Shown piece after piece: positions 7,257 through 27,138 of a stretch of 64,000 bases of DNA. Position numbers and translations under genes: made by a program. Every line of letters starts with the position of its first letter. Position 1 is the first letter of the stretch. Source of the stretch: Thiofilum flexile DSM 14609. Its GTDB lineage: Bacteria > Pseudomonadota > Gammaproteobacteria > Thiotrichales > Thiotrichaceae. The notes below the pieces were generated by a model. It did no database searches and was not told the origin of the DNA. It worked only from the letters and a program-made list of their open reading frames with translations. The stretch is from NCBI RefSeq assembly GCF_000380185.1, contig NZ_KB904816.1, positions 62,001-126,000 on the forward strand. The letters run 5' to 3'.

Positions 7257-7279
7257 TCTTTAATATCCGCTACTTTGGC

Positions 7280-9097: not shown

Positions 9098-9697
9098 TTA
9101 AATCTCAAGCCATTTAGTAAGCGCTTTTTGAATACGTTTACGAAATAGATCAACCTTTTCAGTAGACAGCCGTTCAGCTTTGTAAAGTGATAGCATCTTA
9201 AATCGACAGGTTGGTGCGCAAGTATGCAAAAGTGCTATTTTCAAAACTCGGTATACAGGTTTTCGTAATACCAGATAGTCTACCCACCAAGGCGATCCTA
9301 AAGATGTGATGGCCAGTGTATATCGCAGGTTATAAAGTTTAGGCTTTATTGCACCTAAATCCCTTGCATGATCATAGGCGATGCTAGGGGCCCATACACG
9401 GTCAAACCATCCCTTTAAAATAGCAGGGAAGCCAAACCACCATGTAGGAAAGACTAAAACCAGTACTTGTGCTGAGAGTAGACGCTCTATCTGAGCCTGA
9501 AGCTGTGAAGCATCAAATACTGGGGCATAGTAAGTTTGGCGTTCCGTAATGGTAAGCTCAGACGAAAACCCATGCTGATAAAGATCTTCAACCTCAACCT
9601 CATGACCTGCATCTATCAAGCTTTGAATAGCAGATTGTGCTAAGGAGTGGCATAGGCTATCGGTATTGGGGTGAGCGATTACAACTAAACATTTCAT
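9098..9697 (-). CDS. NAD(P)H-dependent flavoprotein oxidoreductase (quinone reductase-like)
   Basis: The 199-residue protein has a flavodoxin-like fold. The N-terminal strand and phosphate loop MKCLVVIAHPNTDSLCHSLA, plus the FMN/FAD-contact motif VFPTWWFGFPAILKGWFDRV (about residues 82-101), match the KefF/MdaB/NQO1 group (Flavodoxin_2). It probably reduces quinones or other small oxidants with NAD(P)H in the cytoplasm. It is a single gene flanked by a convergent transglycosylase and the divergent ygiQ. The substrate cannot be read from sequence. Confidence 0.88.
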   Translation of the reverse strand: MKCLVVIAHPNTDSLCHSLAQSAIQSLIDAGHEVEVEDLYQHGFSSELTITERQTYYAPVFDASQLQAQIERLLSAQVLVLVFPTWWFGFPAILKGWFDRVWAPSIAYDHARDLGAIKPKLYNLRYTLAITSLGSPWWVDYLVLRKPVYRVLKIALLHTCAPTCRFKMLSLYKAERLSTEKVDLFRKRIQKALTKWLEI

Positions 9698-9853
9698 ATG
9701 ATAGGTGATCTCTTAGTTATATGCTTATGCTGGTTAATAGGCTGCTGGTATTGTGACGTAGGTTGGCATGATTCACCAGCAGAAACTAAGCCTTAAACCA
9801 CTTCTCTTAAAATCTGCTACAATGCGCCACCTTTTTAGCTTTGTACTCACGCC

Positions 9854-12148
9854 ATGTCTGCCTTAAGCCTTACTACTATCCAGCCACCGATTGCTAAACC
9901 TTTGTTTGAATTCCCAAAATATTGGGCAGAGTGCTATGGCACCGCAGAATACTTGCCCATGTCGCGCAAGGAAATGGACAAGCTCGGTTGGGACTCCTGC
10001 GACATTATTATAGTCACGGGTGATGCGTATGTGGATCATCCCTCCTTTGGGATGGCGGTGATTGGGCGCGTCTTAGAGGCACAAGGCTTTCGCGTCGGTA
10101 TTATTGCCCAACCCGATTGGCAATCTAAGGATGCCTTCATGGCACTGGGTAAGCCGAATCTATTTTTTGGTGTCGCGGCGGGTAATATGGACTCCATGAT
10201 CAACCGCTACACCGCTGACCGTAAAATTCGCTCCGATGATGCCTATACACCGGGCAATATAGGCGGCAAACGCCCTGATCGTGCCTCGATTGTTTATTCC
10301 CAACGCTGTAAAGAAGCTTATCCGGATGTACCGATTATTCTAGGCGGTATTGAGGCCTCATTGCGCCGGATCGCTCACTTTGACTACTGGCAAGAACAAG
10401 TGCGCCGCTCGATTTTAATCGATTCTGCGGCTGATTTATTGCTTTATGGTAATGCCGAGCGAGCGGTAGTCGAGGTAGCCCATCGCTTAGCTGCGGGTGA
10501 GTCGATGGAAGTGATTACGGATGTGCGGGGTACCGCGTTTATACGCCGTGGATCGCCAGAGGGCTGGATGGAAATTGACTCCACCCGTGTCGATCAGCCG
10601 GGGAAAATTGATCGCATTATCAATCCTTATCTCAATACTACTGAGATGGATGAGTGCGAAATTGAAAAGCGTAATGTGCAATGGTTTGAGTACCAAGACC
10701 CGCGCTCTAAACGTCCGGATGAGCATAAACTCACCTTCCATCCGCGTGCGCGTCTAGATCGGGCTAAAACCGTGATTCGTTTGCCCTCGTTTGAAAAGGT
10801 CAGCAAAGATAAAATTCTCTATGCCCATGCTAATCGAGTGTTGCATCTCGAAACCAATCCGGGCAATGCCAGAGCCTTGGTGCAAAAGCATGGTAATCAA
10901 GATGTGTGGATGAATCCGCCACCGATACCGCTTACTACACCCGAAATGGATCATGTGTTTGGGCTGCCGTATGCGCGTTTACCGCATCCTGACTATAAAG
11001 GTGAGCGGATTCCTGCCTATGAAATGATCCGTTTTTCCGTGAATATTATGCGTGGTTGTTTTGGGGGCTGTACCTTCTGTTCGATTACCGAGCACGAAGG
11101 GCGCATTATTCAAAATCGTTCGCGCGAGTCGATTTTGCGTGAGGTAGAGGAGATCCGCGATAAAGTACCGGGCTTTACTGGCGTGATTTCAGATTTAGGG
11201 GGGCCGACGGCGAATATGTATCGCTTGGCCTGCAAAGACCCGAAAATCGAAGCCTCCTGCCGTAAACCGAGCTGTGTCTATCCGGGGATTTGCCACAATC
11301 TCAATACCGATCATGCCGAGCTAAAAGCCTTATACCGCGAGGCTCGTACCTTACCCGGTATTAAGAAAGTGCTGATTGGTTCGGGGTTACGTTATGACCT
11401 AGCTGTTAAAGACCCTGAGTATGTCAAAGAACTAGTCACGCATCACGTCGGTGGCTACCTCAAAATTGCCCCTGAGCACACCGAAGAAGCGCCCCTGTCT
11501 AAAATGATGAAGCCGGGGATTGGTGCTTATGATGATTTTAAGCGTCTGTTTGAAAAGTACTCCAAAGAGGCAGGGAAAGAGCAATATTTAATCCCTTACT
11601 TTATCGCCGCACATCCGGGCACGACCGATGAGGATATGCTCAATCTCGCATTGTGGCTAAAGAAAAATGGTTTTCGTGCCGATCAAGTCCAAGCCTTTTA
11701 CCCCTCGCCGATGGCCTCAGCGACCACGATGTATTACACAGATAAAAATCCATTGCATCAGGTCACTTACAAAAGCGAAAAAGTCCATACCGCCAAATCC
11801 CCCGAACAACGCAAATTGCATAAAGCCTTTTTACGTTGGCATGACCCGAAAAATTGGCCTTTATTGCGTAAAGCGATTGCCGATATGGGGCGGCAGGAAT
11901 TAATTGGTGACGGTGAAAATCAATTAATCCCCCACTATAAAAAAGGTGAGGAGGATTTAGAGTATGTATCACACCGCCGCAAGAATAGTGATAAAGCCCA
12001 TCAAAAACGGGTAGAGGCAAGAGAGCAGAGTAAGCAAGCCGCAAAAGGGAATAATGCCAAAGGTAAACAACCTCAAAAAGGAACACTGTTGACTCAGCAT
12101 ACGGGGTTGCCGCCTAGGCCAAATAGTAAAAAAAATAGAGTGAGCTAG
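9854..12148 (+). CDS. ygiQ: YgiQ family radical SAM protein (UPF0313)
   Basis: The 764-residue protein matches the full-length YgiQ family. The N-terminal part contains [20 protein letters not shown] and [10 protein letters not shown], a cobalamin-binding-like region. The radical-SAM iron-sulfur motif is [12 protein letters not shown] at about residue 400. A C-terminal DUF3362-like extension ends in a Lys/Gln-rich tail. The molecular substrate is not established for the family. A possible -10 box TACAAT lies at 9818-9823, about 30 bases before the ATG. The gene is monocistronic by spacing. Confidence 0.95.
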
Positions 12149-12252: not shown

Positions 12253-13929
12253 ATGACCCAAAAACTCGAACTCACTTGGATTGGCAAAGATAAACGTCCT
12301 CGTTTGGAGCCGCGTATCCTGTTGGAAGACCCTACGAAGTCCTATCACGCTGCTGCTCGTGTGAGTGAGGCGGATCAGTTTGATAATCGTTTGATTTTTG
12401 GGGATAATTTATTGGCGCTGCGGGCGTTGGAGAGTGAGTTTACGGGTAAGATCAAATGTGTGTTTATTGACCCGCCCTATAATACGGGTAGTGCGTTTAC
12501 GCATTATGATGATGGGCTGGAGCATTCTATTTGGTTAGGGTTGATGCGGGATCGGCTGGAGATTATCCGGCGGTTGCTGTCTGATGATGGATCATTGTGG
12601 ATTACTATTGATGATAATGAATGCCATTATTTGAAGGTGATGTGTGATGAGATTTTTGGTCGGCAGAACTTTATTTCATCGTTAACTTGGATGAAACGTG
12701 TTTCTCCTGCTAATGATGCTAAGTATTTTAGTTCAGATCATGATTACATTCTTGTTTACGTAAAAACAAAAGAGTTATGGGGCTTGAATCGCTTGGAAAG
12801 AACAGAGCAACATAATTCTTCTTATAAAAATCCTGACAATGACTTAAGAGGGGCATGGAACTCTGTTACATATACAGGTAATAAAAACAGAACAGAGCGT
12901 CCAAACTTATATTATGCGATTAAAAACCCAAATACAGGGGAAAATATCTATCCACCTGATACTTTAACCTGGAGATATGGTTATGAGACTCATATTAAAA
13001 ATGAGAAAGAGAACCTCCTCTATTGGGGGAAAGATGGGAGGTCAAAAACCCCACGATTAAAAAAATTTTTAGATGATGCTGATGCAGTTGTTCCAAGAAG
13101 TATATGGCCTTACTCTGAAGTGGGTAGTACTCAGAGTGCTATGACTGAGCAAAAGGTTATGTTTCAGAGTCCATTTGCAACCCCAAAACCAGAGCAATTA
13201 CTAGAGCGAATTATTCATATTGCGACGAATGAAGGCGATTGGGTACTAGATTCCTTTGCAGGCAGCGGTACAACCGGCGCAGTAGCCCACAAAATGGGTC
13301 GCAAATGGATCATGGTCGAACTAGGCGAACACTGCCACACCCACATCATCCCGCGCCTGCAAAAAGTCATCGACGGCACCGATCAGGGCGGCATTAGCCA
13401 AACAGTAGACTGGCAAGGCGGCGGTGGCTTTCGCTATTACAAACTCGCACCCTCCCTACTAGAGCGCGACCGCTGGGGCAATCTCACCATTAACCTCGCC
13501 TATAACGCCGCCATGCTTAGCGAAGCCCTATGCAAACAACACGGCTACACCTATGCCCCCTCCGAAACCCTATTCTGGCAACAAGGCTATGCCAATGAGC
13601 GCAGCTTCCTCTATGCCACCACACAAAATCTATCCTTAGAACAATTACAGATACTAGCCGAAGAAGTCGGCGAACAACGCTCCTTATTGATCATCGCTGC
13701 TGCTTGGCGTGGCATCAGTGGCGAAGAAGCCAGCCGTCGCTGGCCTAACCTCACCCTGAAAAAAATCCCCAACAGCATCCTCAACCTCTGCGAATGGGGC
13801 AAAGACGACTACAGCCTCAACGTTGCTAACTTGCCGATGGCACAACCTGAGCCAAAACCATCGACCACAAAACCCACCACGAAGGCAGCCAATCCGCAGC
13901 AAACTAGCTTGTTTGGGGGGGATGTATGA
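12253..13929 (+). CDS. Type III restriction-modification methyltransferase (Mod), adenine-specific
   Basis: The 558-residue N6-adenine DNA methyltransferase modifies one strand of a short recognition site and provides specificity for the nuclease subunit. The catalytic motif DPPYNTGS is at about 73-80, before the SAM-binding motif SFAGSGTTGAVAH at about 333-345, the beta-class order of Type III Mod proteins. The target-recognition region lies between them (about 145-315) and is visibly AT-richer than its flanks, while the last third uses strikingly C-ending codons. This mosaic suggests exchange of the recognition domain. The stop overlaps the next gene by four bases (ATGA), indicating coupled translation. 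Confidence 0.93.
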   Translation: MTQKLELTWIGKDKRPRLEPRILLEDPTKSYHAAARVSEADQFDNRLIFGDNLLALRALESEFTGKIKCVFIDPPYNTGSAFTHYDDGLEHSIWLGLMRDRLEIIRRLLSDDGSLWITIDDNECHYLKVMCDEIFGRQNFISSLTWMKRVSPANDAKYFSSDHDYILVYVKTKELWGLNRLERTEQHNSSYKNPDNDLRGAWNSVTYTGNKNRTERPNLYYAIKNPNTGENIYPPDTLTWRYGYETHIKNEKENLLYWGKDGRSKTPRLKKFLDDADAVVPRSIWPYSEVGSTQSAMTEQKVMFQSPFATPKPEQLLERIIHIATNEGDWVLDSFAGSGTTGAVAHKMGRKWIMVELGEHCHTHIIPRLQKVIDGTDQGGISQTVDWQGGGGFRYYKLAPSLLERDRWGNLTINLAYNAAMLSEALCKQHGYTYAPSETLFWQQGYANERSFLYATTQNLSLEQLQILAEEVGEQRSLLIIAAAWRGISGEEASRRWPNLTLKKIPNSILNLCEWGKDDYSLNVANLPMAQPEPKPSTTKPTTKAANPQQTSLFGGDV

Positions 13930-14666
13930 GTGATTTGACCAATGCTGAGCTGATTATCCGTATTCGCGATATTTGGGAGGCATCACGCCAACAAGTGATA
14001 CGCTCAGTTAATTCTGCTCATGTCTGTGCGAATTGGCTAATTGGTAGACAGATTGTAGAAGCTGAGCAAAACGGCGAGCAACGCGCTGAATATGGCAAAA
14101 ACTTATTAAAAACACTTTCAAAACAACTCAGTACCGAATACGGAAATGGCTTCTCAGTAAGTGCTTTGCAATATATGAGAGCATTTTTTTTGGCCTATCC
14201 TGCTCTACTGCCAATTCAACACGCAGTGCGTGTTATTTCTCTTGAATCAGCACCAACCGATGCGACTTGGCAGCCCGGCAAGCTTCATGTGGGTTTATCA
14301 TGGACGCACTACCGCACCTTGTTAAAAGTTGAGCGGCAAGAGGCGCGTGATTTTTACGAGATTGAAACCATCCGCAATGGCTGGTCGGCTCGACAGCTAG
14401 AGCGGCAAATTGCCTCATTATTGTTTGACCGTTTGCTGAAAAGCCGTGATAAGGCTGGGGTGATGGCACTAGCTAATCAGGGCTTACAACCAACTCGCCC
14501 ACTAGATGTGATCAAAGACCCTTATGTATTAGAGTTTCTGAATCTACCCGAAGCTACTCAATGGCATGAAAGCGAGTTAGAGCAAGCATTACTGGCTCAA
14601 TTACAAGCTGAGTTACAACGTGAATTAAACCAATTTGCGGCGTTGCCGAAAGAAGAAACACTATGA
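13926..14666 (+). CDS. DUF1016 (YhcG-like) N-terminal domain protein lacking its nuclease domain
   Basis: Its 246 residues match the DUF1016 N-terminal region: ELIIRIRDIWEASRQQV, YGKNLLKTLSKQLSTEYG, FSVSALQYMRAFF and the LSWTHYRTLLKVE segment, up to VLEFLNLPEATQWHESELEQ. Full-length YhcG-type proteins then continue into a PD-(D/E)XK nuclease of about 120 residues. Here the protein ends about 25 residues after that junction, so the nuclease is absent. It overlaps mod upstream and res downstream by four bases each, so it is built into the Type III operon. A DNA-binding or accessory role for the Mod-Res complex is inference. Confidence 0.88.
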   Translation: MSDLTNAELIIRIRDIWEASRQQVIRSVNSAHVCANWLIGRQIVEAEQNGEQRAEYGKNLLKTLSKQLSTEYGNGFSVSALQYMRAFFLAYPALLPIQHAVRVISLESAPTDATWQPGKLHVGLSWTHYRTLLKVERQEARDFYEIETIRNGWSARQLERQIASLLFDRLLKSRDKAGVMALANQGLQPTRPLDVIKDPYVLEFLNLPEATQWHESELEQALLAQLQAELQRELNQFAALPKEETL

Positions 14667-17359
14667 CACGCCAACAAACCTTACATGACATTAAAACCAG
14701 CCTATCCCTACGCTCACCCCAAGCCGAATCCCTGCAAAAACTGGCTACTGCACTAGATGTTGCTCCTGCGTTACTACAAACAGGCGAGCGCGACCTTAGC
14801 GCTATCCTCTCTAGTTTGAAACAGCAATTTCCCACCTTGGAAGATTTCGAGCGTGAATTTCCCTCGCTGTGTTTTGCATTGGCAACTGGGGTGGGTAAGA
14901 CGCGCTTAATGGGAGCCTTCATCACCTATTTGCATCTAGCTTATGGCCTCAATAACTTCTTTGTACTCGCGCCTAATCTAACGGTCTATAACAAACTGAT
15001 TGCCGATTTTACCCCTAATACACCCAAATACGTGTTTAAGGGGATTCACCATTTCGTATTCCAGCCCCCAGAAATCATTACCGGCGATAATTACGACTAT
15101 CGTGCAGCACAAATACAGAGCAGTTTGCTTTCACCTGTCACTATTAATATTTTTAATATTGCCAAGATCAATTCAGAAGTGAGAGGGGGCAAGGAGCCAC
15201 GCATCAAGCGCATGAAGGAAGTGCTGGGTGATAGCTATTTCAACTATCTCGCCAATCTACCCGATTTAGTCATGCTCATGGACGAATCGCACCGCTACCG
15301 GGCTAGTGCTGGGGTACGCTCTATTAATGAGCTTAAGCCCTTATTCGGCCTTGAACTCACCGCCACTCCATTCGTGGAAACCAGTCGTGGCACCAGCGCT
15401 TTCAAAAATGTGGTAATGGATTACCCACTAGCACGGGCTATGGTGGATGGTTTCGTCAAGGAGCCTGCAGTTGTCACTCAACGTGGTTTTACAGCTACTG
15501 ATTATTCAGCCGATGAAATCGAGCATATCAAGCTGGAGGATGGTATTCGTCTACACGAAATCACCAAGGTAGAGTTGATGACCTACGCTCGTGAAAATAA
15601 TGTACCTATTGTCAAACCCTTTATGTTGGTAATTGCACGGGATACTACCCATGCAGCGCAATTGCTTGCAAAGGTTCAGACCTTGTTTGATGGGCGTTAT
15701 CAGGGTAAGGCCATTCAAGTGGATAGCAGTAGGTCAGGTGCGGAAGAGGAGGAAATGATTAACCGACTGCTAGCAGTGGAAAGTGTTGATGAACCAACTG
15801 AAATCGTCATTCACGTCAATATGCTTAAGGAAGGTTGGGATGTCACCAATCTCTACACCATTGTGCCATTGCGTGCTGCTAATGCTCGTACTCTAATTGA
15901 GCAGTCGATTGGACGCGGTCTACGCTTGCCCTATGGCAAACGTACGGGTAATGCCGCCGTTGACCGACTCAATATTGTTGCTCATGACCGCTTTCAAGAA
16001 ATCCTTGATGAGGCTAACCGAGGTGATTCACCCATTCGCCTCCAGCGCGTGATTTTGGATGCGCCAACGCCAGACGATAAAAAAATAAGCATTGAAGTCC
16101 CATCCAATATTGGGGTTATGATTGATGATAGCATTTATTTCAAAATGCAACGGAGGGCTGAAACGGCTGCAACAATTCCGACCCCTGAACCCCTTTTCAA
16201 AACCGAAGCAGAGCGTGAAGCTGCCCGTGTTGTAGTCGATGTGGCGGCTGGCTATGCGGTTAAGCGGGAGCTTGTTCCTACTAGTCAAGCGCTGCTACAG
16301 CCCGAAATCCGCCACGCGATTCAAAAGGACGTTAGCGAGCGCCTGACCCCGCAACAAGGCGCATTATTCACGGCTGAGAATGCTCCCGATCTTGCCGCCA
16401 TTGTTGCTAAAACTACAGCTATTATGGTACAGCAAAGCATCGATATTCCCCGTATTTTGGTTAATCCTACCGGCGAGGTGGAAACTGGCTTTCACCCGTT
16501 TAAACTGAATGTTAGCGGTCTGCACCTGCAACCTGGTGAGCGTGAGCTGGTCGGGCAGATGCTGCGTACCAACAAACAATTCTATCTCAAAGCCGATGCA
16601 GGCAAACAGGAGCAGCGGCTGGAGGATTATGTCGTATTTGCCCTGCTTGATTACGATGATATTGACTATTTTAGCCAGAAGGAAATCCTTTACGATCTTG
16701 CTGGGCAAATGGTGACGCATCTACGCTCCTATCTATCGGAAGAAGAAGCACATAACGTATTGAACAAGGATCGTCACCTGATTGCCCGTGAAATTCATGC
16801 TCAGATGCTCACTCATTTCTGGGAAAGGGCTAGTAGTTATGAGGTGCAGGTTAGTCGAGGTTTCACACCACTGAAAACATGTAATTTTACTACTTCCGCT
16901 AATCAGCCCTTATGCTTTTACCGAGAAACTGTACTAGAAACTAGCCGTATCAAACAGATGCTGTTTGGTGGTTTTGAGCGTTGTCTATATCCTGCCCAGA
17001 AATTTGACTCTGATACAGAGCGTCGTTTTGCTATTTTGCTAGAACGGGATGCACAAAAGTGGTTTAAGCCAGTGAAGGGGCAGTTCCAGATTTACTACAA
17101 GCAAGGAAGTGAGCAGCCAGAGTATGTACCTGATTTTGTCGCAGAAACTGATGATGCTATTTTAATGGTAGAAACCAAGGCTAGGACAGACATAGATTCT
17201 CAAGAGGTGCAAGCTAAGGCCGATGCAGCGCGTCGCTGGTGTCAGCAAGCATCCACTTATGCACAAGAGCAGGGAGGGAAAACGTGGTATTACCTGCTGA
17301 TTCCACATGACGAAGTGAAGGAGGATAAGAGGCTAGTGGATTTCCTAAGATTTCAGTAA
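14663..17359 (+). CDS. Type III restriction enzyme helicase-nuclease subunit (Res)
   Basis: The 898-residue protein is an SF2 helicase fused to a nuclease. Walker A is in ATGVGKTRLMGAF (about 74-86), the DEAD-like box is LMDESHRYRAS, motif III is ELTATPF, and the C-terminal helicase motif VI is QSIGRGLRLPYG. The C-terminal PD-(D/E)XK nuclease is visible as YVPDFVAE followed by VETKAR (about 823-842). With Mod it should translocate on DNA and cut next to unmodified sites. The start overlaps the DUF1016 gene by four bases. All key motifs are intact, so the system looks functional. Confidence 0.94.
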   Translation: MTRQQTLHDIKTSLSLRSPQAESLQKLATALDVAPALLQTGERDLSAILSSLKQQFPTLEDFEREFPSLCFALATGVGKTRLMGAFITYLHLAYGLNNFFVLAPNLTVYNKLIADFTPNTPKYVFKGIHHFVFQPPEIITGDNYDYRAAQIQSSLLSPVTINIFNIAKINSEVRGGKEPRIKRMKEVLGDSYFNYLANLPDLVMLMDESHRYRASAGVRSINELKPLFGLELTATPFVETSRGTSAFKNVVMDYPLARAMVDGFVKEPAVVTQRGFTATDYSADEIEHIKLEDGIRLHEITKVELMTYARENNVPIVKPFMLVIARDTTHAAQLLAKVQTLFDGRYQGKAIQVDSSRSGAEEEEMINRLLAVESVDEPTEIVIHVNMLKEGWDVTNLYTIVPLRAANARTLIEQSIGRGLRLPYGKRTGNAAVDRLNIVAHDRFQEILDEANRGDSPIRLQRVILDAPTPDDKKISIEVPSNIGVMIDDSIYFKMQRRAETAATIPTPEPLFKTEAEREAARVVVDVAAGYAVKRELVPTSQALLQPEIRHAIQKDVSERLTPQQGALFTAENAPDLAAIVAKTTAIMVQQSIDIPRILVNPTGEVETGFHPFKLNVSGLHLQPGERELVGQMLRTNKQFYLKADAGKQEQRLEDYVVFALLDYDDIDYFSQKEILYDLAGQMVTHLRSYLSEEEAHNVLNKDRHLIAREIHAQMLTHFWERASSYEVQVSRGFTPLKTCNFTTSANQPLCFYRETVLETSRIKQMLFGGFERCLYPAQKFDSDTERRFAILLERDAQKWFKPVKGQFQIYYKQGSEQPEYVPDFVAETDDAILMVETKARTDIDSQEVQAKADAARRWCQQASTYAQEQGGKTWYYLLIPHDEVKEDKRLVDFLRFQ

Positions 17360-17381: not shown

Positions 17382-17756
17382 CTAAAATGAAGATAGGGTG
17401 AGCAAGGCTATTTCTTCTAATAGCTGATTTAATGAAAAAGGTTTTTGTAGAAATATAATCTTATTTTTAGAAAAAAGATTATTGAGAGTTTCGGTTTTTT
17501 TCAAAAAACCAGTCATAAAAATAACAGCAATATCAGGCCATTGTTGGCGTACTGAGTTAATAAACTGCACGCCATCCCCATCGGGTAAATTCATATCCGT
17601 GATAATGACATCAAAATGCTGCTGTAATAGGTTTCGCGCTTCTGCCAAGCTATGAGCTTTTTGTACCTGATAATTATGATCTAATAAAAAAAGCTCTATT
17701 AATTGAGCATAAGTGGTTTCATCCTCAAGGAGTAAAATAGAGAGTGCTTGGCTCAT
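17382..17756 (-). CDS. Single-domain response regulator (receiver)
   Basis: The 124-residue protein consists of one receiver domain: acidic pocket LLLEDE at the N-terminus, phospho-acceptor Asp in IITDMNLPDGDG (about residue 54), Thr in FMTGF and Lys in LQKPFS. There is no output domain, so it probably acts as a phosphate relay, sink or protein-interaction switch. Its start overlaps the Hpt gene by four bases, so the two are translationally coupled. The last gene of the signalling block. Confidence 0.92.
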   Translation of the reverse strand: MSQALSILLLEDETTYAQLIELFLLDHNYQVQKAHSLAEARNLLQQHFDVIITDMNLPDGDGVQFINSVRQQWPDIAVIFMTGFLKKTETLNNLFSKNKIIFLQKPFSLNQLLEEIALLTLSSF

Positions 17757-18118
17757 GGTACAGCTCTACTTAAATATTGATTAAATAAATCCTCTAAACA
17801 CTGTAATAAGTGATCAAGCTTTTTACTAATGATAGAGTTAGAACACTCCGTAGCCTGTGGTAAGGCTAATAAAAAAGTACAATCATTAGAAACTATCTCC
17901 ACACCTAATAACTCAGCAACACCATAAAGCTGATGAAGAATTCTTTTAATCTGAATAGTATCACCTGCCTGATTAGCTAGAGTAATACGCTGATGGTAAT
18001 CCTTACAAGAATTAAAGAAGCTACATAATAACTCTAAATAAACGCTCTCTGAATAGCCAATATTCTTCAAGCCTTTATCAATATTAATACCAGTAATCTG
18101 TTCTATGTTTTTTAGCAT
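17753..18118 (-). CDS. Histidine-phosphotransfer (Hpt) domain protein
   Basis: The 121-residue protein is mainly helical. The segment IKRILHQLYGVAELLG resembles the Hpt consensus HxLKGxAxxLG, with the candidate phospho-histidine at about residue 63 and Tyr in place of the usual Lys. The conserved spacing and the position between two receiver-containing genes support the call. It starts 12 bases after the GGDEF-EAL gene and overlaps the receiver gene downstream. It probably shuttles phosphate from the hybrid kinase to the two regulators. Identification rests on motif and context. Confidence 0.78.
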   Translation of the reverse strand: MLKNIEQITGINIDKGLKNIGYSESVYLELLCSFFNSCKDYHQRITLANQAGDTIQIKRILHQLYGVAELLGVEIVSNDCTFLLALPQATECSNSIISKKLDHLLQCLEDLFNQYLSRAVP

Positions 18119-18129
18119 AAGTTCTCTTT

Positions 18130-20307
18130 TTAACGTGTCCGAGTAAAGTATTGAGCTAACTTATTTGCACTTAACGAGGGGCTAAAATAAAAACCCTGAA
18201 CAAAATCACACTCATGTTCTTGTAAAAATAGTAGTTGTTCTTTAGTTTCTACACCTTCAGCAACAATTTTAATATTTAAGTTATAGGCCAATGAAATTAA
18301 AGATTTCAGAATTTGATTGTTTTTTTCACTGCTAAATATTTCTGCGACAAATAGCTTATCTATTTTTAATACATCAAACTGAAAGCTTTTTAATAATTTC
18401 ATAGAGGAGAATCCTACTCCAAAATCATCAATAGCAAACTGAATGCCTAACTGATGCAATTCTTCCAAAGCTTTAAAACTGCCAGGTGAGACATTGATGA
18501 GTGAGTTTTCAGTAATTTCAAGAGTAATTTTATGAAAAGGGATATTGTATCTTATTAGAGGTGTAGTGATTTTGTGTAAAAAATCTTTTTGTATGATTTG
18601 TTCTGCACACACATTAACAGAAATACTCTTAAAGTCTAGGTCTTGTATCATCCACTGATGAATTTGCTCACAAACTTTATTCAGCACAAAATAAGAAATA
18701 TCTTTAATAAAACCTATTTTTTTGGCACTTTCTAAAAAGTCATCTGCTTTTAGCTTCCCACTAACAGGATGATTCCAGCGTATTAAAGCCTCTGCTCCAA
18801 TATACTCTTGTGTTTGAGTAGAAAATTGAGGCTGATATTCTACAAAAAAACTATTATTAGCCAATAAAGCAGGGAGTTTATGCTTAATTTCTAACTCTAG
18901 ACCGTGTATTTTAGCTAGGTACTCATCGTATAGATAATAATTGCCTGCTCGGTTTTCCTTGGCTTTATATAATGCAAGATCAGTGCGACCTAAAATATCC
19001 TCAGTACTCAAGTGTTTATCATCACAAATACTAACACCGATACTAACCGTAATATTAAGCTGTAGTCCAGAATTAAATTGATAAGCAGCATTTAGTGATT
19101 CGGAAAGATTAGCGACTAACTGTAATAGTTCTGTTTTATCTTTAAAACCATTAATAATCAAACTAAACTCATCCCCACCGAGGCGAGCTATTTTTTCCTT
19201 GGCAATGCTAGAGGCTAATAAACGTTGAGCAAGCATAATCAGTAGCTCATCACCCGTAATATGCCCATAGCCATCATTAATTTGTTTAAAATAGTCAATA
19301 TCCAGTAATAAAATAGCAAATAGTTGATTAGAAGATTGTAGCTGGATCAGTTCCTTTTTTAAGAGCATCATGAATAAGGCTCGATTAGAAAGGCCGGTCA
19401 TTGAATCTTTATAGGCTAAGGCATAGAGTCGTGATTCAATTAGTTTACGTTGACTGATATCGCTAAAATTAATGAGAATATGAGATTTACCGCTCTTATC
19501 CATCATGGGTCTAGAGCGAAATTCTACTGGAAAGCCACGATGATCTTTGTCATACCATAGTGCGTCAGAGGAAAATATTTCTTTATGAATAGAAATAGGG
19601 TTTCCTAGAACATCTATAGTGCCTAGATCGTGATTCAGTGGATAAAGATTTAGGTTTTCACCTTCTAACTGTTCAGTATAGTGATAGCCTAATAAGCGTA
19701 ATGCGGTATTATTAGCCTGTAAACAAACCCCCTGAGCATTAACAATAAGACTGCCTTCTTCTAAGCTACTGACTACACCACTCATATCACCTTTAACCAA
19801 AAAATGATTGGCTTCATCTAATGCTTGTTTTATTTTATGTAAGTTTTCTGTTTGTGTTACAACAGCATGCTCTAAGGTACATCTTAACCAATACATATTT
19901 CTATGCTTTTGTAAGCGAGCTAATAAGACCTCTGCCTCAAAAGGTTTAGTTATATAATCAACTCCGCCGGATTGAAACCCCGCTATTTTATCTTGATCTT
20001 CCCCTTTTATAGTAATAAAAATAATGGGTATGTTTTTTGTACTAGGCATGCTTTTGAGTCTTCTACATATCTCAAAACCATCCATTTCGGGCATCATAAC
20101 GTCCAGTAAAATAATATCAGGACGTTCTTTTTCTATAATTTCGATGCTTTTTAAACTATCACTGCAGGTTATAACTTGATAGCCTGATTTTTTGAGTAAA
20201 ATTTCCAAAAACCGTAAAATAGTTTTTTCATCATCAACGGCGAGTATCTTGGTCATACCGAGATCTGGCTTGCTAGGGATAGAGGTAAATATTGCGTTCA
20301 TTTCCAT
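18130..20307 (-). CDS. Response regulator with PAS, GGDEF and EAL domains (c-di-GMP turnover)
   Basis: The 725-residue protein has domains in this order. A receiver at about 18-135 carries Asp in ILLDVMMPEMDG. A PAS domain lies at about 165-290. The GGDEF domain (about 295-460) has intact RLGGDEFSLI. The EAL domain (about 475-720) has GAEALIRWNHP, SVNVCAEQ, EITENS, IDDFGVGFSS, LKIDKLF and AEGVET. Both catalytic halves therefore look complete, while the allosteric RxxD site just ahead of GGDEF is not present. Phosphorylation through the neighbouring Hpt probably tunes synthesis or breakdown of c-di-GMP. The net direction cannot be read from sequence. Confidence 0.93.
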   Translation of the reverse strand: MEMNAIFTSIPSKPDLGMTKILAVDDEKTILRFLEILLKKSGYQVITCSDSLKSIEIIEKERPDIILLDVMMPEMDGFEICRRLKSMPSTKNIPIIFITIKGEDQDKIAGFQSGGVDYITKPFEAEVLLARLQKHRNMYWLRCTLEHAVVTQTENLHKIKQALDEANHFLVKGDMSGVVSSLEEGSLIVNAQGVCLQANNTALRLLGYHYTEQLEGENLNLYPLNHDLGTIDVLGNPISIHKEIFSSDALWYDKDHRGFPVEFRSRPMMDKSGKSHILINFSDISQRKLIESRLYALAYKDSMTGLSNRALFMMLLKKELIQLQSSNQLFAILLLDIDYFKQINDGYGHITGDELLIMLAQRLLASSIAKEKIARLGGDEFSLIINGFKDKTELLQLVANLSESLNAAYQFNSGLQLNITVSIGVSICDDKHLSTEDILGRTDLALYKAKENRAGNYYLYDEYLAKIHGLELEIKHKLPALLANNSFFVEYQPQFSTQTQEYIGAEALIRWNHPVSGKLKADDFLESAKKIGFIKDISYFVLNKVCEQIHQWMIQDLDFKSISVNVCAEQIIQKDFLHKITTPLIRYNIPFHKITLEITENSLINVSPGSFKALEELHQLGIQFAIDDFGVGFSSMKLLKSFQFDVLKIDKLFVAEIFSSEKNNQILKSLISLAYNLNIKIVAEGVETKEQLLFLQEHECDFVQGFYFSPSLSANKLAQYFTRTR

Positions 20308-20415
20308 AAATGAATCTAATCGTAAACGTTTCTATTAAGCTTTAGTTACTAAAACCAAGAAAAGTATTAAAGTTAATTTTAACAGCAAGCTATATCCTCA
20401 TTTTGCCTAAAAGAG

Positions 20416-21357
20416 TTATGGAGCCTCTGCTGCTGCTTCAGTTAGCAATGTTTTTAGGTCAACAGAGTATTTTGCTAGTGCTGCTCGGGTTTCATCAGTG
20501 AGAAAAGGATTGTCAATTTTCAGTAGGCGTCGCTCCAGTAGGTGTAGGTTTTTAAGTACATCACGAGTTAGTGGATGAGTCATCAGCAGTTTATGATAGG
20601 AACCATCAGCTACTGCAATTTCTAGGCCATGATAGAGAGCATCGTGCAAAGCTTGATTATTCGGGGCTACAAAGAAGTAGATGGCTAAGGGATAGTAAAG
20701 CAGCAGTGATTGCTCCACCCCAATATCGGGGTATTGAGCAGGGTCTAGCTCTTGATTAATTTCCAAAATACTGCGCGGGTAATAATCGCCACGATTAGCC
20801 TCCAACATGGGCATTAAACTAGAGTATTTCCCCAGAATAACCGGTAGTTTATGTGCTTCTAAGATATTGACATCAGACCAGTTACTCCCTAATAAGGCTC
20901 TAAACCGGGAGAGATCCGCAATGCTTTTGATGGCTTGAAAGGCGGCTTGGCGTTCTTTTCTAATGAGAAATACACGATACCCCAATAGTCCCTGCAACAG
21001 TGGAATGCGCACAGGTAAGAGTTGCTCCTCAAACTCGCGGGAGGTGCCTTGCCATACGACATTCACAAACTCTGGACTGCTAACAATACGTGCAGCAACC
21101 GGCGGGAGAGAGGCGGGAGTGACTTCAATCGTATAAGGATAGCCACTTTTTTCTAGCGCTAGTTTTAATAGGGCAAAATAGAGAATTTTGTCTATATCGG
21201 TATTAGGGAGCTGGGTAATACGGACTACTAGCTTGTTTTTTGCAAGTGTAGTGGGTTCTGGTTCGGAGGCTATTCCCTGATGAGACCAGCTAATCCCTAG
21301 CAGTAGGCTAAATAGAGTCAGTAGAGTTAAGTACACGGCAGGGTATTTAGTGGACAT
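20416..21357 (-). CDS. Periplasmic solute-binding-like protein, paralogue 1
   Basis: The 313-residue protein has a signal peptide (about 1-30). The remainder resembles bacterial extracellular solute-binding family 3 proteins: KLVVRITQLPNTDIDKIL and YFALLKLALEKSGYPY at the start, then ILEINQELDPAQYPDIGVEQ. It shares long blocks with the adjacent upstream gene, including RIPLLQGLLGYRVFLIRKE and LLYYPLAIYFFVAP. No permease or ATPase genes are nearby, so a sensory role feeding the neighbouring histidine kinase is more likely than transport. GGGAG precedes the ATG by about 8 bases. The start overlaps the upstream gene by 11 bases. Confidence 0.75.
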   Translation of the reverse strand: MSTKYPAVYLTLLTLFSLLLGISWSHQGIASEPEPTTLAKNKLVVRITQLPNTDIDKILYFALLKLALEKSGYPYTIEVTPASLPPVAARIVSSPEFVNVVWQGTSREFEEQLLPVRIPLLQGLLGYRVFLIRKERQAAFQAIKSIADLSRFRALLGSNWSDVNILEAHKLPVILGKYSSLMPMLEANRGDYYPRSILEINQELDPAQYPDIGVEQSLLLYYPLAIYFFVAPNNQALHDALYHGLEIAVADGSYHKLLMTHPLTRDVLKNLHLLERRLLKIDNPFLTDETRAALAKYSVDLKTLLTEAAAEAP

Positions 21358-22315
21358 AGTTCAGCTCCCGTATACTAGAAATACGCTGTGGATTGACTCC
21401 ATAACGGGCTAAAGCGGCACGAGTATCATCTGTTAAAAAGGGATTGTCTATTTCTATAAGATGACGCTGAGGCAGATTTAACGTTTTAAATATATTCTGA
21501 GTCATGGGGTGAGTGGCGAGGAGTTCGTTATAAGAACCATCCGCCATGGCTCTTTCTAGGCCATTTTGTAATGCATCACGCAGTACGATTTGTCCGGGGG
21601 CTACAAAAAAATAAATAGCCAGTGGGTAGTGTAAGAGGAGGGATTGTTCGATTCCAACAGTAGGATATCGAGTCTCATCTAGCTGTTGATTAATTTCAAA
21701 AATACTTCGTGGATAATAATCGCCCCGACTCGACATGAGCATTGAGACTAGATTGGTATAAATACCCTCCACCACGGGTAGGTTTTTCGCTCGCATAATA
21801 GCCACATCGGACCAGCCTCGACCCAGCAGTGCTTTAAATTGAGCGAGATTGTCCAGTGTTTTGACTTCATTCCAGATAGGTTGATCCTCTTTGCGAATAA
21901 GGAACACTCTATAACCCACCATCCCCCGTAGTAAAGGAATACGCACCGGCAATAATTGCGCCTCAATTTCTTTTGAGGTGCCTATCCAGCCAATATTGAC
22001 CAAGTCGGGATGGGTTATGATGCGATGAAAGTGGGTGGTGGCGGAGACTGGAGTAATCTTAATCTCATAAGGATGCCCGCTTTTTTGTAGTGCGAGTTCT
22101 AGTAAAGAGAAATAGATGTCCGTTTTGATGTCAATATTGGGTTGTTGTGAGAGTCGTATCTGGAGTTTAGTCTTAACATCGGGGGGCGGTGTGACTGCAG
22201 CGGTATCCACCATATCTGCCTTCGCTAATGGCGGGATTAGGCCAAAAAATAAGAGCAGGGTTATTATGAGAATAACAGGGCGGATAGATGGTTGCATATT
22301 TATTAAAGCCCTCAT
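21347..22315 (-). CDS. Periplasmic solute-binding-like protein, paralogue 2
   Basis: The 322-residue protein has a signal peptide (hydrophobic core VILIITLLLFFGLIPPLA). It is a tandem duplicate of the gene that follows, with matching segments KLQIRLSQQPNIDIKTDIYF, RIPLLRGMVGYRVFLIRKE, SRGDYYPRSIFEINQQLDE and LLLHYPLAIYFFVAPG. It lies 31 bases after the hybrid kinase gene, in one apparent operon. It probably binds a small periplasmic ligand and signals to the kinase. A Met at 22297 is an alternative start. The ligand is unknown. Confidence 0.75.
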   Translation of the reverse strand: MRALINMQPSIRPVILIITLLLFFGLIPPLAKADMVDTAAVTPPPDVKTKLQIRLSQQPNIDIKTDIYFSLLELALQKSGHPYEIKITPVSATTHFHRIITHPDLVNIGWIGTSKEIEAQLLPVRIPLLRGMVGYRVFLIRKEDQPIWNEVKTLDNLAQFKALLGRGWSDVAIMRAKNLPVVEGIYTNLVSMLMSSRGDYYPRSIFEINQQLDETRYPTVGIEQSLLLHYPLAIYFFVAPGQIVLRDALQNGLERAMADGSYNELLATHPMTQNIFKTLNLPQRHLIEIDNPFLTDDTRAALARYGVNPQRISSIRELNYVH

Positions 22316-22346
22316 GCCTGGTTTAAAACCCCTACATTGTCGCGGT

Positions 22347-24236
22347 TTAGGTGGGGGTATTCAGTAAACGACTGAGTACACGAGCCAAATGTTTACGCGA
22401 AAACGGTTTTTGTAACAGTATTACACCTTCATCAAGGCGAGCATTATGAATGATAGCATTTTCTGTGTAACCTGACATAAAAGCCACTTTAAAATAAGGG
22501 CGCTCGGCCTCTAATAAACTCGCGAGGGCACGCCCATTTAATTTCCCCGGTAAGGTAATATCTAGTAAAGCCGCATCAATATGGGGATGACTATGAAACA
22601 GTGCGAGTGCAGTATCCGCTTCCGGTGCGGTAATGACCTGAATATTCATATCCATCAGTTGAGCTTTAACGACCTCTAATACTAGTGGATCATCCTCAAC
22701 CACTAATAGGCAATATCCCGTAAAATTAGGCATGATAGCCGATACACGTTCTACAGCAGGTTTGGCAGTGAGTGCTTGGGTATAGCGTGGTAGATAGAGT
22801 TTAACCGTTGTCCCCTGAGCCTCCTCGCTATAGATTTTAATATGCCCCCCCGATTGTTTAGCAAACCCATAAGCCATAGAAAGACCTAGCCCCGATCCTT
22901 TTCCAATAGGCTTGGTAGTGAAATAAGGCTCAAAAGCCCGTGCCACGGTTTCCTTACTCATACCCATACCATTATCACTAATCGCAAAACACACATATTG
23001 CCCGGAGGTGACATCGCCTTCTTGTAGGCAATAATCAATATCTAGCCACGTATTCCTGACTTCAATGGTTAAATTACCACCATTCGGGAGCGCATCGCGA
23101 GCATTGAGTGCTAAATTTAATAACACGGTTTCTAATGCCTGCCGATCCGCAAAACAGTGCCACAGCCCACTACTGATCACGAATTCAAGTGCATATTGTT
23201 CACCTAAAGCACGCCTTAAGAGGTTTTCCATATTATGAAAGAGTTCACCGGCTAGAATAGGGGTGGGTTCAAGGGGTTGATTACGCGAATAAGCCAGTAA
23301 TTGTGCAGTAAGCTTGCTACCCTTATCCGTCGCTCCATGCGCCATAGTGAGTAGTTTTTTCCCACGCTCACTGTGCTCCATACTTTCTAGTAATTCTAAG
23401 CTGCCCATAATAATTGCCAGAATATTATTAAAGTCATGAGCTACCCCACCGACTAATTGCCCGATGGCAGATAACCGCTCTGAGTGACGTAATTGTTGCG
23501 TCATTTTTTTAGTCAGTGCTTGTGCCTCGGATAGTTCCTGTAAATGGGCGCGGCTAGTATTCAAAATATGGTTAGCAGACAAGGCCATCGTGGTAATTTC
23601 ATTATTAGCCTTCGCAATCCGCTTGGGCAAAGGAAAAGGCTCCGGTTGACGTGGGTCAACGGCTGTGAGGCATTGATTCAGGGCTTTGAGGGGAGTGGTG
23701 AGTCCCCAGTAAAATAAATACAGTAAGAGCGCTGTGAGTAATACATTTTTGAGAATACCGATGGCGACTACATTGAGAGAGCGGCGGTAAAAATCTTGTA
23801 AAATCGTATTATTATGCACTTCAATACTGAGCTTACCGACATAGATACGGGTTTTTGATTCTGTGAGTGGAATGTCATAGACCTTATAAGGCGCGGTGAA
23901 GAAGCGGGTCACATGATCAAAGAAAGGGAATTTAGGGGGGCGGGTCAGGTGGGCAATTCTGACATTCCGATCATCGGTGATAGTTACCGAGGTGATAAAT
24001 TCATAGATCATCAAGGGTTGCGCCGCTTCTAGGGCAAGGCCTTTATCTAGTTGAAAAGCCGCTTGCATGGCTGCTGCTGAGGCAACTGCTAGAATATTTT
24101 GGATAAAATGCGTATTGCGTGGGGATTCATCTGTAAAATCTTGAGTGATTTGAATAGCACTCGTAATAAGTCCTAGCGATACTGCAATAGCCAATCCATA
24201 GCGGGTAAGAGTGAGTGCAATGGTACGTTTTTTCAT
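22347..24236 (-). CDS. Hybrid sensor histidine kinase with C-terminal receiver
   Basis: The 629-residue protein starts with a membrane segment (about 10-30), a periplasmic sensor loop (about 31-160), and a second membrane segment (about 168-188) leading into a HAMP-like linker. The HisKA box is GGVAHDFNNILAIIMGSLE (His at about 268). The ATPase domain carries NLALNARDALPNGG, ISDNGMGMS and GKGSGLGLSMAYG. The receiver (about 510-625) has Asp in LLDITLPG and Lys in LQKPFS. It probably passes phosphate from its own receiver to the Hpt protein encoded in the same block. The short periplasmic loop suggests sensing through the adjacent solute-binding proteins. Confidence 0.93.
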   Translation of the reverse strand: MKKRTIALTLTRYGLAIAVSLGLITSAIQITQDFTDESPRNTHFIQNILAVASAAAMQAAFQLDKGLALEAAQPLMIYEFITSVTITDDRNVRIAHLTRPPKFPFFDHVTRFFTAPYKVYDIPLTESKTRIYVGKLSIEVHNNTILQDFYRRSLNVVAIGILKNVLLTALLLYLFYWGLTTPLKALNQCLTAVDPRQPEPFPLPKRIAKANNEITTMALSANHILNTSRAHLQELSEAQALTKKMTQQLRHSERLSAIGQLVGGVAHDFNNILAIIMGSLELLESMEHSERGKKLLTMAHGATDKGSKLTAQLLAYSRNQPLEPTPILAGELFHNMENLLRRALGEQYALEFVISSGLWHCFADRQALETVLLNLALNARDALPNGGNLTIEVRNTWLDIDYCLQEGDVTSGQYVCFAISDNGMGMSKETVARAFEPYFTTKPIGKGSGLGLSMAYGFAKQSGGHIKIYSEEAQGTTVKLYLPRYTQALTAKPAVERVSAIMPNFTGYCLLVVEDDPLVLEVVKAQLMDMNIQVITAPEADTALALFHSHPHIDAALLDITLPGKLNGRALASLLEAERPYFKVAFMSGYTENAIIHNARLDEGVILLQKPFSRKHLARVLSRLLNTPT

Positions 24237-24473: not shown

Positions 24474-24572
24474 ATAAATATTAAACCATACTATTTTCTT
24501 TACTTTTTTCAGACTATCTATCTTGCATCAGAATCATCATTTCGCTTGGCTTATTCAACAAGGGAGGTTTAT

Positions 24573-25652
24573 ATGCCAAAAATAGGGTTAGGTTTACCGT
24601 GGTGGACTATAGCAATGCCAGTGTTGGCGTGGATAGCCCTAGGTAGCCTAGTGATGTTTCCAGGCGTATTTGCCACAATTTTTAGCATTATGGGGTTGTT
24701 TGGTGGGGTGCTGGCGGCGGTTTACCATGCTGAAATCATTGCGCATCGGGTTGGGGAGCCTTTAGGTACTTTAGTGTTAGCCATTGCAGTCACCATCATT
24801 GAGGTGGCCTTGATTGTGGCCTTAATGTTTAGTGCCGATGCTCCGGTGTCAGCCTTACCGCGTGATACCGTGTTTGCCTCGGTAATGATTATTCTCAATG
24901 GTCTGATTGGCTTATGTTTACTCATGGGGGGGAGTCGTTTCGGGGAGCAATATTTTGGCTCGTATGGCGTGCTGGCGGCATTAGTAACCTTAGTAGCCAT
25001 TGTAGTGCTCACGTTAATTTTACCTAATTACACCACCTCGCAATATGGGCCGGTTTATAATGAGCAGCAGTTAATATTTGTCGCCTTAGTATCCTTAATT
25101 CTCTATGGCATTTTTATCTTTGTGCAAACCGTGCGCCATCGTAATTATTTCATTTATCAGTCAGATGAAAAGACCGAGCAGCATTCTAAACCGACTAATC
25201 AGGCGGCACTACTGAGCTTAGGATTATTATTAGTGTGTTTAGGAGCCGTGGTATTATTAGGGTCAAACTTGTCGCCTACCATTGAGTCACTGATTAATGC
25301 TTGGGGCGCACCTAAGGCATTGGTGGGGGTGATTATTGCTATGGTGGTCTTATTGCCAGAAAGCATTGCTGCCCTCCAAGCGGCTCGCGCGAATCGGCTA
25401 CAGACTAGTCTGAATCTCGCGCTAGGGTCAGCACTAGCGACCATTGGCTTAACTATTCCTACCGTGGCGATTATTTCAATTGCTAATGGCTGGACTTTAA
25501 TGCTAGGGATTGATGCTAAATCAACGGTCTTATTAATCTTAACTCTGTTTATTGTTTCCTTATCTTTAGGCACAGGACGTACTACCATTATGCAGGGGGT
25601 GGTGCATTTAGTGATTTTTGCGGTGTATTTATTTATGACTATTGTACCTTGA
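24573..25652 (+). CDS. Calcium/proton (cation/H+) antiporter, ChaA-like
   Basis: I chose ATG 24573 because AGGGAGG lies 5 bases ahead; the longer frame would begin at a TTG. The 359-residue integral membrane protein has about 11 hydrophobic helices. The two CaCA exchanger signature regions are visible as AEIIAHRVGEPLGTLVLAIA with TIIEVALI in the first half, and VVLLPESIAALQAARANRL with GSALATIGLTIP in the second. Length and motifs match ChaA-type Ca2+(Na+)/H+ exchangers, which export cations in exchange for protons under alkaline or salt stress. Confidence 0.9.
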   Translation: MPKIGLGLPWWTIAMPVLAWIALGSLVMFPGVFATIFSIMGLFGGVLAAVYHAEIIAHRVGEPLGTLVLAIAVTIIEVALIVALMFSADAPVSALPRDTVFASVMIILNGLIGLCLLMGGSRFGEQYFGSYGVLAALVTLVAIVVLTLILPNYTTSQYGPVYNEQQLIFVALVSLILYGIFIFVQTVRHRNYFIYQSDEKTEQHSKPTNQAALLSLGLLLVCLGAVVLLGSNLSPTIESLINAWGAPKALVGVIIAMVVLLPESIAALQAARANRLQTSLNLALGSALATIGLTIPTVAIISIANGWTLMLGIDAKSTVLLILTLFIVSLSLGTGRTTIMQGVVHLVIFAVYLFMTIVP

Positions 25653-26583: not shown

Positions 26584-27138
26584 ATGCACAAAATTCTAGC
26601 TGGTCTACACCAAGATCATATCAATCTCGCTCATTTATTGGGTCTATTGGAGGAGCAGGTAAAGCATTTAGCTGCTGGAGATGATGCAAATCTTAGTTTA
26701 ATTTTGGATATTGCTGATTATATTGGGCGCTATTCTGATTATGTGCATCATCCCAAAGAAGATAAGGTGTACGAGGTATTAACCCAATGCACGGCTGAGG
26801 GCGCAGACACGGTTACGACCCTACTGACCCAACATCATCAACTTCCACAAGATACCCTAAGCTTCCAAGCCTTGATTCAAGGGGTCTTATATGATGATGC
26901 GATTGTGTTGCGCGATGATTTGGTGAGTAAAATCAATACCTTTATTAGAGCGCAAAAGCAGCATATGGATTTAGAAGAGGGTATTGTGTTTCCTTTGATT
27001 AATGCCAATCTTAAACCTAAGCAGTGGTCAGCACTGGAAGATATCATTTTAAATGATGACGATCCCCTATTTGGTGCAAAGGTATTAGAGCGCTACGAGC
27101 AGTTATACGCGGTTTTAAACGCTAGAGTCAGTGCTTGA
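26584..27138 (+). CDS. Hemerythrin domain-containing protein
   Basis: The 184-residue helical-bundle protein carries the histidine and acidic ligands of a di-iron hemerythrin cation-binding domain: LHQDHINL near the N-terminus, SDYVHHPKEDKVYEVL, LTQHHQLPQD and KQHMDLEEGIVFPL. It probably binds oxygen, nitric oxide or iron in the cytoplasm; the YtfE/DnrN group is one relative but lacks the extra N-terminal domain here. GGAGTTGC lies just before the ATG. A palindromic hairpin follows the stop. Confidence 0.88.
   Translation: MHKILAGLHQDHINLAHLLGLLEEQVKHLAAGDDANLSLILDIADYIGRYSDYVHHPKEDKVYEVLTQCTAEGADTVTTLLTQHHQLPQDTLSFQALIQGVLYDDAIVLRDDLVSKINTFIRAQKQHMDLEEGIVFPLINANLKPKQWSALEDIILNDDDPLFGAKVLERYEQLYAVLNARVSA

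What the first reader, a model, noticed from the sequence alone, without database searches (positions are those of the whole stretch)
17382..24236. Complete phosphorelay from tandem periplasmic binding proteins to c-di-GMP
A hybrid kinase, two duplicated solute-binding-like proteins, a GGDEF-EAL response regulator, an Hpt and a lone receiver lie consecutively on one strand. No transporter genes accompany the binding proteins, so they probably act as ligand sensors for the kinase. Four-step phosphate flow with one Hpt and two possible receivers suggests a branch point.
Basis: partly seen in the sequence, partly recalled or inferred. Interest (0 to 1): 0.5.

Follow-up and report, generated by a model that had tools for sequence, protein, structure and literature searches.

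The report
Binding-protein-sensing phosphorelay to c-di-GMP
Six neighbouring bacterial genes look like one complete signalling chain in which two secreted binding proteins report a chemical outside the cell to a membrane kinase that controls the messenger c-di-GMP; the same six genes recur together in Thiothrix eikelboomii, and the kinase's sensor is related to a class that is often encoded beside such binding proteins.

Summary
Six minus-strand genes lie where stated: hybrid kinase, two 59%-identical secreted binding-protein-like genes, REC-PAS-GGDEF-EAL regulator, free Hpt, lone receiver, with active-site motifs present. The block recurs in the same order, between different neighbours, in Thiothrix eikelboomii. 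Of 63 family genomes only these 2 have the kinase sensor or a strong Hpt match. In the window's genome this is the only hybrid kinase found without its own Hpt, and the Hpt the only free-standing one found. So the relay is complete on paper.

New: the kinase's periplasmic domain is a remote CHASE5 relative that Pfam misses. Around 30 CHASE5 genes of other Gammaproteobacteria, 23 have an adjacent co-directional binding-protein-like gene, against 0 of 30 CHASE controls. The binding proteins therefore most likely dock on the kinase. Against: only 2 of 10 closer relatives of the sensor have such a neighbour, and the operon's halves differ in GC. Ligand, output sign and use of the branch are not shown. 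Verdict: real; a new variant of a known kind, with a possible general CHASE5 rule.

The parts
22347..24236 (-). Hybrid histidine kinase, 629 aa: TM1, about 120-residue CHASE5-like periplasmic domain, TM2, HisKA (HDFNN at residue 267), HATPase_c, REC
   Evidence: CHASE5 relation
21347..22315 (-). PBP1, 322-aa secreted solute-binding-like protein
20416..21357 (-). PBP2, 313-aa paralogue of PBP1 (59% identity); the genes overlap by 11 bases
20308..20415 (-). 108-base gap between the two halves; no minus-strand terminator or promoter-like site found
18130..20307 (-). Response regulator, 725 aa: REC-PAS-GGDEF-EAL; GGDEF and EAL motifs present, no RxxD inhibition site
17753..18118 (-). Free-standing Hpt, 121 aa, HQLYGVAELLG motif at residue 62
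17382..17756 (-). Lone receiver, 124 aa, acid pair, Asp, Thr and Lys motifs present

Best explanation
A six-gene sensory phosphorelay with c-di-GMP output. Inferred: PBP1 and PBP2 bind small ligand(s) in the periplasm and dock on the CHASE5-like periplasmic domain of the kinase, changing its kinase/phosphatase balance. From the domain anatomy: phosphate would pass from His267 of HisKA to Asp of the kinase REC, to His62 of the free Hpt, then to Asp of the REC-PAS-GGDEF-EAL regulator and/or of the lone receiver. Inferred: the regulator mainly degrades c-di-GMP when phosphorylated, and the lone receiver competes for phosphate as a sink or second output. Shown here: gene order, domains, motifs, conservation of the whole block in a second genome, uniqueness of the kinase-Hpt pair among what the genome searches found, and the relation of the sensor to CHASE5. 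Everything about ligand, flow and sign is inference.
For: Same six genes, same order, 45-72% identity per protein with pN below pS in all six (pS close to saturation), between different flanks in T. eikelboomii. 2 of 63 family genomes have the kinase sensor and the same 2 have the strong Hpt matches. Own genome: 4 Hpt domains in 3 proteins, one free-standing; only 3 open frames (630, 962, 1181 aa) hold both HATPase_c and Response_reg, and the two others carry Hpt. Motifs at the phosphate-carrying His and Asp sites are present in both genomes. Sensor related to CHASE5: hhalign 97.3% on the periplasmic part alone, 0.3% for the reversed control; a profile from 28 of the 30 CHASE5 loci has the window kinase (2.9e-6) and the T. 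eikelboomii kinase (6.1e-4) as its only hits at E 1 or less among ORFs of 100 aa or more in both loci. 23 of 30 CHASE5 genes have an adjacent co-directional binding-protein-like gene, 0 of 30 CHASE controls; Pfam SBP_bac_3 independently matches 13 of 24 upstream neighbours, against 1 of 7 in the control, where the only upstream neighbour that looks to be the match is a 928-aa protein. In genome G349 a PBP of the window's own family overlaps a CHASE5-PAS-GGDEF-EAL gene.
Against: No biochemistry. Pfam's CHASE5 model does not recognise the sensor, and direct comparison of the two-row sensor alignment with the G349 CHASE5 protein and the G028 protein was not significant; the relation appears only with deeper profiles. 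The sensor structure model is poor (mean pLDDT 54.7). Of 10 other genomes with a closer relative of the sensor, only 2 have an adjacent co-directional binding-protein gene. In the window the PBP genes follow the kinase, whereas in 22 of the 23 CHASE5 cases they precede it. By a BLAST check that sees only fairly close relatives of the window's domains, 8 of 69 other PBP genes have a signalling gene next to them. The CHASE control is imperfect: only 7 of 30 CHASE genes have any co-directional upstream ORF of 180 aa or more within 100 bases, against 24 of 30 for CHASE5. The halves of the operon differ in GC.
Confidence: 0.7

Rival explanations
1. The binding proteins sit in the operon but do not sense for this kinase: they scavenge nutrients for a distant transporter or are degenerate. 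The kinase senses a ligand directly with its own periplasmic domain.
For: The (poor) sensor model resembles Cache/PAS-like ligand-binding sensor domains (WalK Z 10.2, TlpA 10.0, DcuS 8.5). By BLAST only 8 of 69 other PBP genes lie next to signalling genes, and 6 of 10 sensor relatives have no binding-protein gene in the stretch examined (one of them starts at a contig end).
Against: In the family genomes the tandem PBP pair and the sensor are present together in the same 2 genomes; one further genome, G028, has a single distant PBP without this sensor being found. No ABC transporter gene among the flanking ORFs scanned at either locus. CHASE5 sensors have an adjacent binding-protein-like gene in 23 of 30 cases.
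Confidence: 0.18
2. Two functional halves joined by chance or recent fusion: kinase plus PBPs serve another regulator, and regulator-Hpt-receiver serve another kinase.
For: GC 44-45% against 32-34% and a 108-base gap; the same trend, weaker, in T. eikelboomii (46-47% against 34-41%).
Against: Same six-gene order in a second genome with a shorter gap. No other hybrid kinase without Hpt and no other free Hpt found in the genome. No terminator or promoter-like site found in the gap, by a weak scan.
Confidence: 0.1
3. Within the same relay, the lone receiver is not a second output but a phosphate sink or a brake.
For: It has no output domain. Receivers without output domains act as sinks in other relays (recalled).
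Against: None specific; CpdR is a single-domain receiver with a regulatory role of its own (CpdR1 passages seen; its place under CckA-ChpT recalled). Sequence cannot separate the two roles.
Confidence: 0.5

Closest known systems
LuxPQ-LuxU-LuxO (Vibrio harveyi AI-2 sensing)
   Same: Periplasmic binding protein plus hybrid kinase plus separate Hpt protein (passages on LuxP, LuxQ and LuxU seen, PMC5394107).
   Different: Here two paralogous binding proteins of the SBP family-3 fold, a CHASE5-like sensor, and a GGDEF-EAL regulator plus lone receiver in one six-gene block; LuxO is a transcription regulator (recalled).
VieSAB (Vibrio cholerae)
   Different: In VieS sensor and relay domains are fused in one protein; here binding proteins and Hpt are separate. 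VieA has an HTH domain; VieB has a TPR domain.
NspS-MbaA (Vibrio cholerae)
   Same: A periplasmic binding protein controls a GGDEF-EAL membrane enzyme; the two coding regions overlap (passages seen, PMC8967002).
   Different: No phosphorelay; one binding protein; the c-di-GMP enzyme is itself the receptor.
CckA-ChpT-CtrA/CpdR
   Same: The kinase core's best match among solved chains is 5idj (E 2.8e-41, deposited as histidine kinase), whose aligned letters agree with 5idm, named CckA (E 2.1e-28). Hybrid kinase, separate phosphotransferase, regulator (passages on ChpT and CpdR1 seen, PMC11500502; the branch to CpdR recalled).
   Different: Here the carrier is a Pfam Hpt (ChpT is of another type, recalled); no cell-cycle regulator; a periplasmic sensor with binding proteins beside it.

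Membership tests
Hybrid-kinase multistep phosphorelay | HisKA, HATPase_c, kinase REC, Hpt and terminal REC present, with motifs at the phosphate-carrying His and Asp | tested here: met
Hybrid-kinase multistep phosphorelay | Phosphotransfer between the parts | not testable with these tools
   needs purified proteins
LuxPQ/LuxU-type design | Free binding protein, hybrid kinase without Hpt, free Hpt | tested here: met
LuxPQ/LuxU-type design | LuxP-type binding protein sensing AI-2 | not testable with these tools
   no Pfam match; ligand unknown
BvgS/VieS | Binding domains and Hpt fused to the kinase | tested here: not met
   separate genes in both genomes
CHASE5 sensors (Pfam PF17149) | Match to the Pfam model | tested here: not met
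   no CHASE5 match (HMMER's filters drop most matches above 0.1) and none in the own genome at E 0.001
CHASE5 superfamily | Profile homology of the periplasmic domain | tested here: met
   hhalign 97.3% over 107 columns, reversed control 0.3%; profile E 2.9e-6
SBP_bac_3 (Pfam PF00497) | Match to the Pfam model | tested here: not met
   (2 of 12 members of alignment A1 match at E 0.01 or less; PBP1, the member shown, does not)
Family-3 solute-binding protein fold | Two-lobe binding-protein fold | tested here: met
   PBP1 only
GGDEF-EAL phosphodiesterase | EAL catalytic motifs present | tested here: met
GGDEF-EAL phosphodiesterase | Enzyme activity and its sign | not testable with these tools
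   needs an assay

The most novel reading that the evidence does not exclude
CHASE5 and its unrecognised relatives are docking domains for free periplasmic binding proteins: many bacterial kinases, diguanylate cyclases and phosphodiesterases carry one and take their input from a small binding protein encoded next door. The window's system is a six-gene version in which the binding protein was duplicated, possibly giving two ligand inputs to one kinase.
Probability: 0.55. Interest if true: 0.65.

Novelty: new variant of a known kind. Interest (0 to 1): 0.47.

Why it matters
It is a compact, self-contained relay for which no competing hybrid kinase without Hpt and no competing free Hpt was found in the genome, so it is a clean case for testing how separate binding proteins drive a kinase and c-di-GMP. 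More widely, the CHASE5 pairing would give an input mechanism to a sensor class found in 41 of 369 sampled class genomes, for which two searches of the held library showed me no bacterial paper (none, 10 of 26 titles seen).

Tried and rejected
Tried without result: single-protein scan of named genomes with PBP1 (none confirmed); Pfam and NCBIfam on the PBPs (none); BLAST comparison of the kinase with the G028 HAMP protein and hhalign of the two-row sensor alignment with that protein and with the G349 CHASE5 protein, not significant; PDB sequence search with the PBPs (weak partial matches); search for 5GZS in papers (none). (order) searched the same 63 genomes as and adds nothing.

Rejected: a first iterative binding-protein model that drifted into kinases and regulators, replaced by one limited to ORFs of 200-330 aa. 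That model was seeded with three proteins (two with Pfam SBP_bac_3 matches; one not scanned) and contains its own hits by construction, so its E-values are not independent; the Pfam tally is. Whether the PBP pair stems from one old duplication (trees) is not resolved; the clade tests reject none of the arrangements tried at 0.05. The promoter and terminator scan is no better than shuffles (23 found against 20.8; 4 against 4.7). My kinase N-box pattern had no match in either kinase because its spacing was wrong: the box reads NLALNA and aligns with NLAVNA of CckA. Idea not pursued: c-di-GMP feedback on the kinase as in CckA; the CckA Tyr concerned (Y514, numbering and role recalled) seems to align with a Tyr here, but such a motif is widespread (recalled), so it says little.

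Rows dropped: alignment A1 holds 12 of the 14 PBP proteins (left out: one with withheld letters, one very divergent). The 69-row tree took only PBPs of 250-360 aa from the named loci and omits the same two. The CHASE5 profile used 28 of 30 loci. The 30 CHASE5 loci are those the tool returned, one per genome, of 41 genomes with a match; the CHASE control likewise 30 of 144. They are not all phylogenetically independent. Of the 24 CHASE5 genes with a co-directional upstream ORF, 22 have a binding-protein-like one, against 0 of 7 in the control, but the control's 928-aa neighbour, which starts like a binding protein, was outside the size window. One CHASE5 case (L216) is marginal (E 0.0019); without it 22 of 30. 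The CHASE5 gene of G144 is also one of the 10 sensor relatives. Of the 70 named PBP loci, six gave no PBP in my BLAST labelling.
Full report
Observation. The six ORFs lie at 17382-24236 on the minus strand as described. Domains: kinase HisKA, HATPase_c, REC; regulator REC, PAS, GGDEF, EAL; Hpt; lone REC. The two binding-protein-like genes match no Pfam or NCBIfam family but are 59% identical to each other and have hydrophobic N-termini. PBP1 is predicted with the two-lobe fold of family-3 solute-binding proteins (mean pLDDT 85.7; Z 14.7-16.2 in the 50 rows shown, among them a histidine-kinase sensor domain, 3h7m). Flanking ORFs scanned with Pfam (6 in the window, 4 in the T. eikelboomii locus) include no ABC transporter part; the kinase's divergent neighbour is a Na/Ca-exchanger-type protein.

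Function of the parts. Motifs at the phosphate-carrying His and Asp positions are present in the window and in T. eikelboomii: HDFNN in HisKA, acid pair, Asp and Lys motifs of the receivers, H-x-LYG in the Hpt, GGDEF, and the EAL motif series; the RxxD inhibition site is absent. My N-box pattern missed in both kinases because of its spacing; the box is visible in the alignment to CckA. The best NCBIfam model over the regulator is a phosphodiesterase, DibA, far below its cut-off (354.8 against 980 bits). I infer net c-di-GMP breakdown.

One module. The flanks scanned differ. Identities are 72% kinase, 53% PBP1, 59% PBP2, 68% regulator, 45% Hpt, 58% receiver, with pN below pS for all six and pS near saturation. 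Among the 63 held family genomes the PBP family is in 3 (own, G039, and a distant single copy in G028), the kinase sensor in 2, and Hpt matches in 4, of which 2 are strong (E 4.5e-78, 1.9e-30) and 2 weak (5.7e-5, 7.2e-4).

Partners by exclusion. In the window's own genome (71 contigs, 100% complete by the tool) there are 4 Hpt domains: two in a 1181-aa frame, one in a 962-aa frame, and the free one here. Of 25 HATPase_c and 27 REC matches, only the frames of 630, 962 and 1181 aa hold both (my pairing by contig and frame length). So the window's kinase is the only hybrid kinase without an Hpt that these searches found. Divergent carriers outside the Pfam Hpt model could be missed.

The gap. In T. 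eikelboomii the gap is 27 bases (listed TTG start) and three of the five junctions overlap. Against this, GC is 44.6, 44.2 and 44.9% in kinase and PBPs but 33.9, 32.0 and 33.9% in regulator, Hpt and receiver; in T. eikelboomii 46.1, 47.2 and 46.2 against 40.9, 36.5 and 33.6%. A mosaic origin is possible.

The sensor. Relatives of the kinase's N-terminal 220 residues occur in 10 other genomes of 369 in the class (11 with own). Seven of the 10 proteins were scanned with Pfam and carry GGDEF, GGDEF-EAL or kinase output. One locus has two tandem SBP_bac_3 genes directly before a sensor-GGDEF gene (G425); one has a binding-protein gene before a CHASE5-PAS-kinase-REC gene (G144); one has a binding protein further upstream on the same strand (G284), one a binding-protein match on the opposite strand (G427), six none, one of which starts at a contig end. 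The sensor family aligns with CHASE5 at 99.6% probability over 185 columns including membrane helices, and at 97.3% over 107 columns for the periplasmic part alone; reversed controls give 0.2% and 0.3%. Pfam's own CHASE5 model does not see the window's sensor.

The CHASE5 pattern. CHASE5 occurs in 41 of 369 class genomes. Around 30 of these genes, 23 have an adjacent co-directional binding-protein-like gene (22 upstream, 1 downstream), against 0 of 30 CHASE genes treated the same way (Fisher p 1.7e-10). Counted only among genes with a co-directional upstream ORF of 180 aa or more, it is 22 of 24 against 0 of 7; CHASE genes thus have fewer upstream partners of any kind, which inflates the first contrast. 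Pfam SBP_bac_3 independently matches 13 of 24 upstream neighbours at E 0.01 or less; in the control 1 of 7 matches, apparently the 928-aa one. The downstream case, G349, is a PBP of the window's own family overlapping CHASE5-PAS-GGDEF-EAL, with a second GGDEF-EAL gene overlapping on the other side. In G028 a PBP relative lies 26 bases from a HAMP protein whose sensor part matches the window's sensor family at 95.2% but the CHASE5 profile at only 23.8%; plain profile searches did not report it.

The PBP family. Named relatives lie mostly in Gamma-, also in Betaproteobacteria, with two Balneolales MAGs (70 loci); 7 of 369 class genomes with own have one by a single-protein search. Of 69 PBP genes of 200 aa or more outside the window and T. 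eikelboomii, 38 have a co-directional neighbour within 80 bases, and 8 have a signalling gene next to them by a BLAST check that sees only fairly close relatives. Of 10 chosen neighbours scanned with Pfam, 5 are signalling or HAMP proteins and none an ABC transporter part. I did not scan all neighbours for transporters. This PBP family is therefore not signalling-specific.

Known systems. The plan resembles LuxPQ-LuxU (passages), a split VieS (passages) and NspS-MbaA, whose coding regions also overlap (passages). In all ten library searches, of which I saw listings, often capped, I saw no description of this module or of CHASE5 pairing with binding proteins; 'chase5' with 'periplasmic' gave no paper, and of 26 papers holding 'chase5' I saw 10 titles, none bacterial.

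Verdict. A real, conserved, complete-looking phosphorelay block of a known general kind, in a new arrangement. The wider CHASE5 observation is the more interesting result; it rests on one sample, one imperfect control domain and no experiment.

Noticed in passing
window 12253-17359, +: Restriction-modification island whose end lies 22 bases from the lone receiver gene: N6_N4 DNA methylase (12253-13929), DUF1016/YhcG-like nuclease (13926-14666) and type III restriction res-like protein (14663-17359), overlapping.
   Followed up: partly
window 17382-24236: GC content drops from about 44-45% in the first three genes to 32-34% in the last three, within one putative operon.
   Followed up: partly
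L022 (G349) 5661-11663: Binding protein of the window's family overlapping two GGDEF-EAL genes, one with a CHASE5 domain.
   Followed up: partly
L119 (G425) 5566-8393: Two tandem SBP_bac_3 genes followed by a CHASE5-like sensor with GGDEF output: another tandem arrangement.
   Followed up: partly
L007 (G028) 7400-9147: Binding protein 26 bases from a 273-aa membrane HAMP protein with no output domain found.
   Followed up: partly
window 24546-25652 and 26584-27138, +: Divergent neighbours of the kinase: a Na/Ca-exchanger-type protein and a hemerythrin-domain protein.
   Followed up: no
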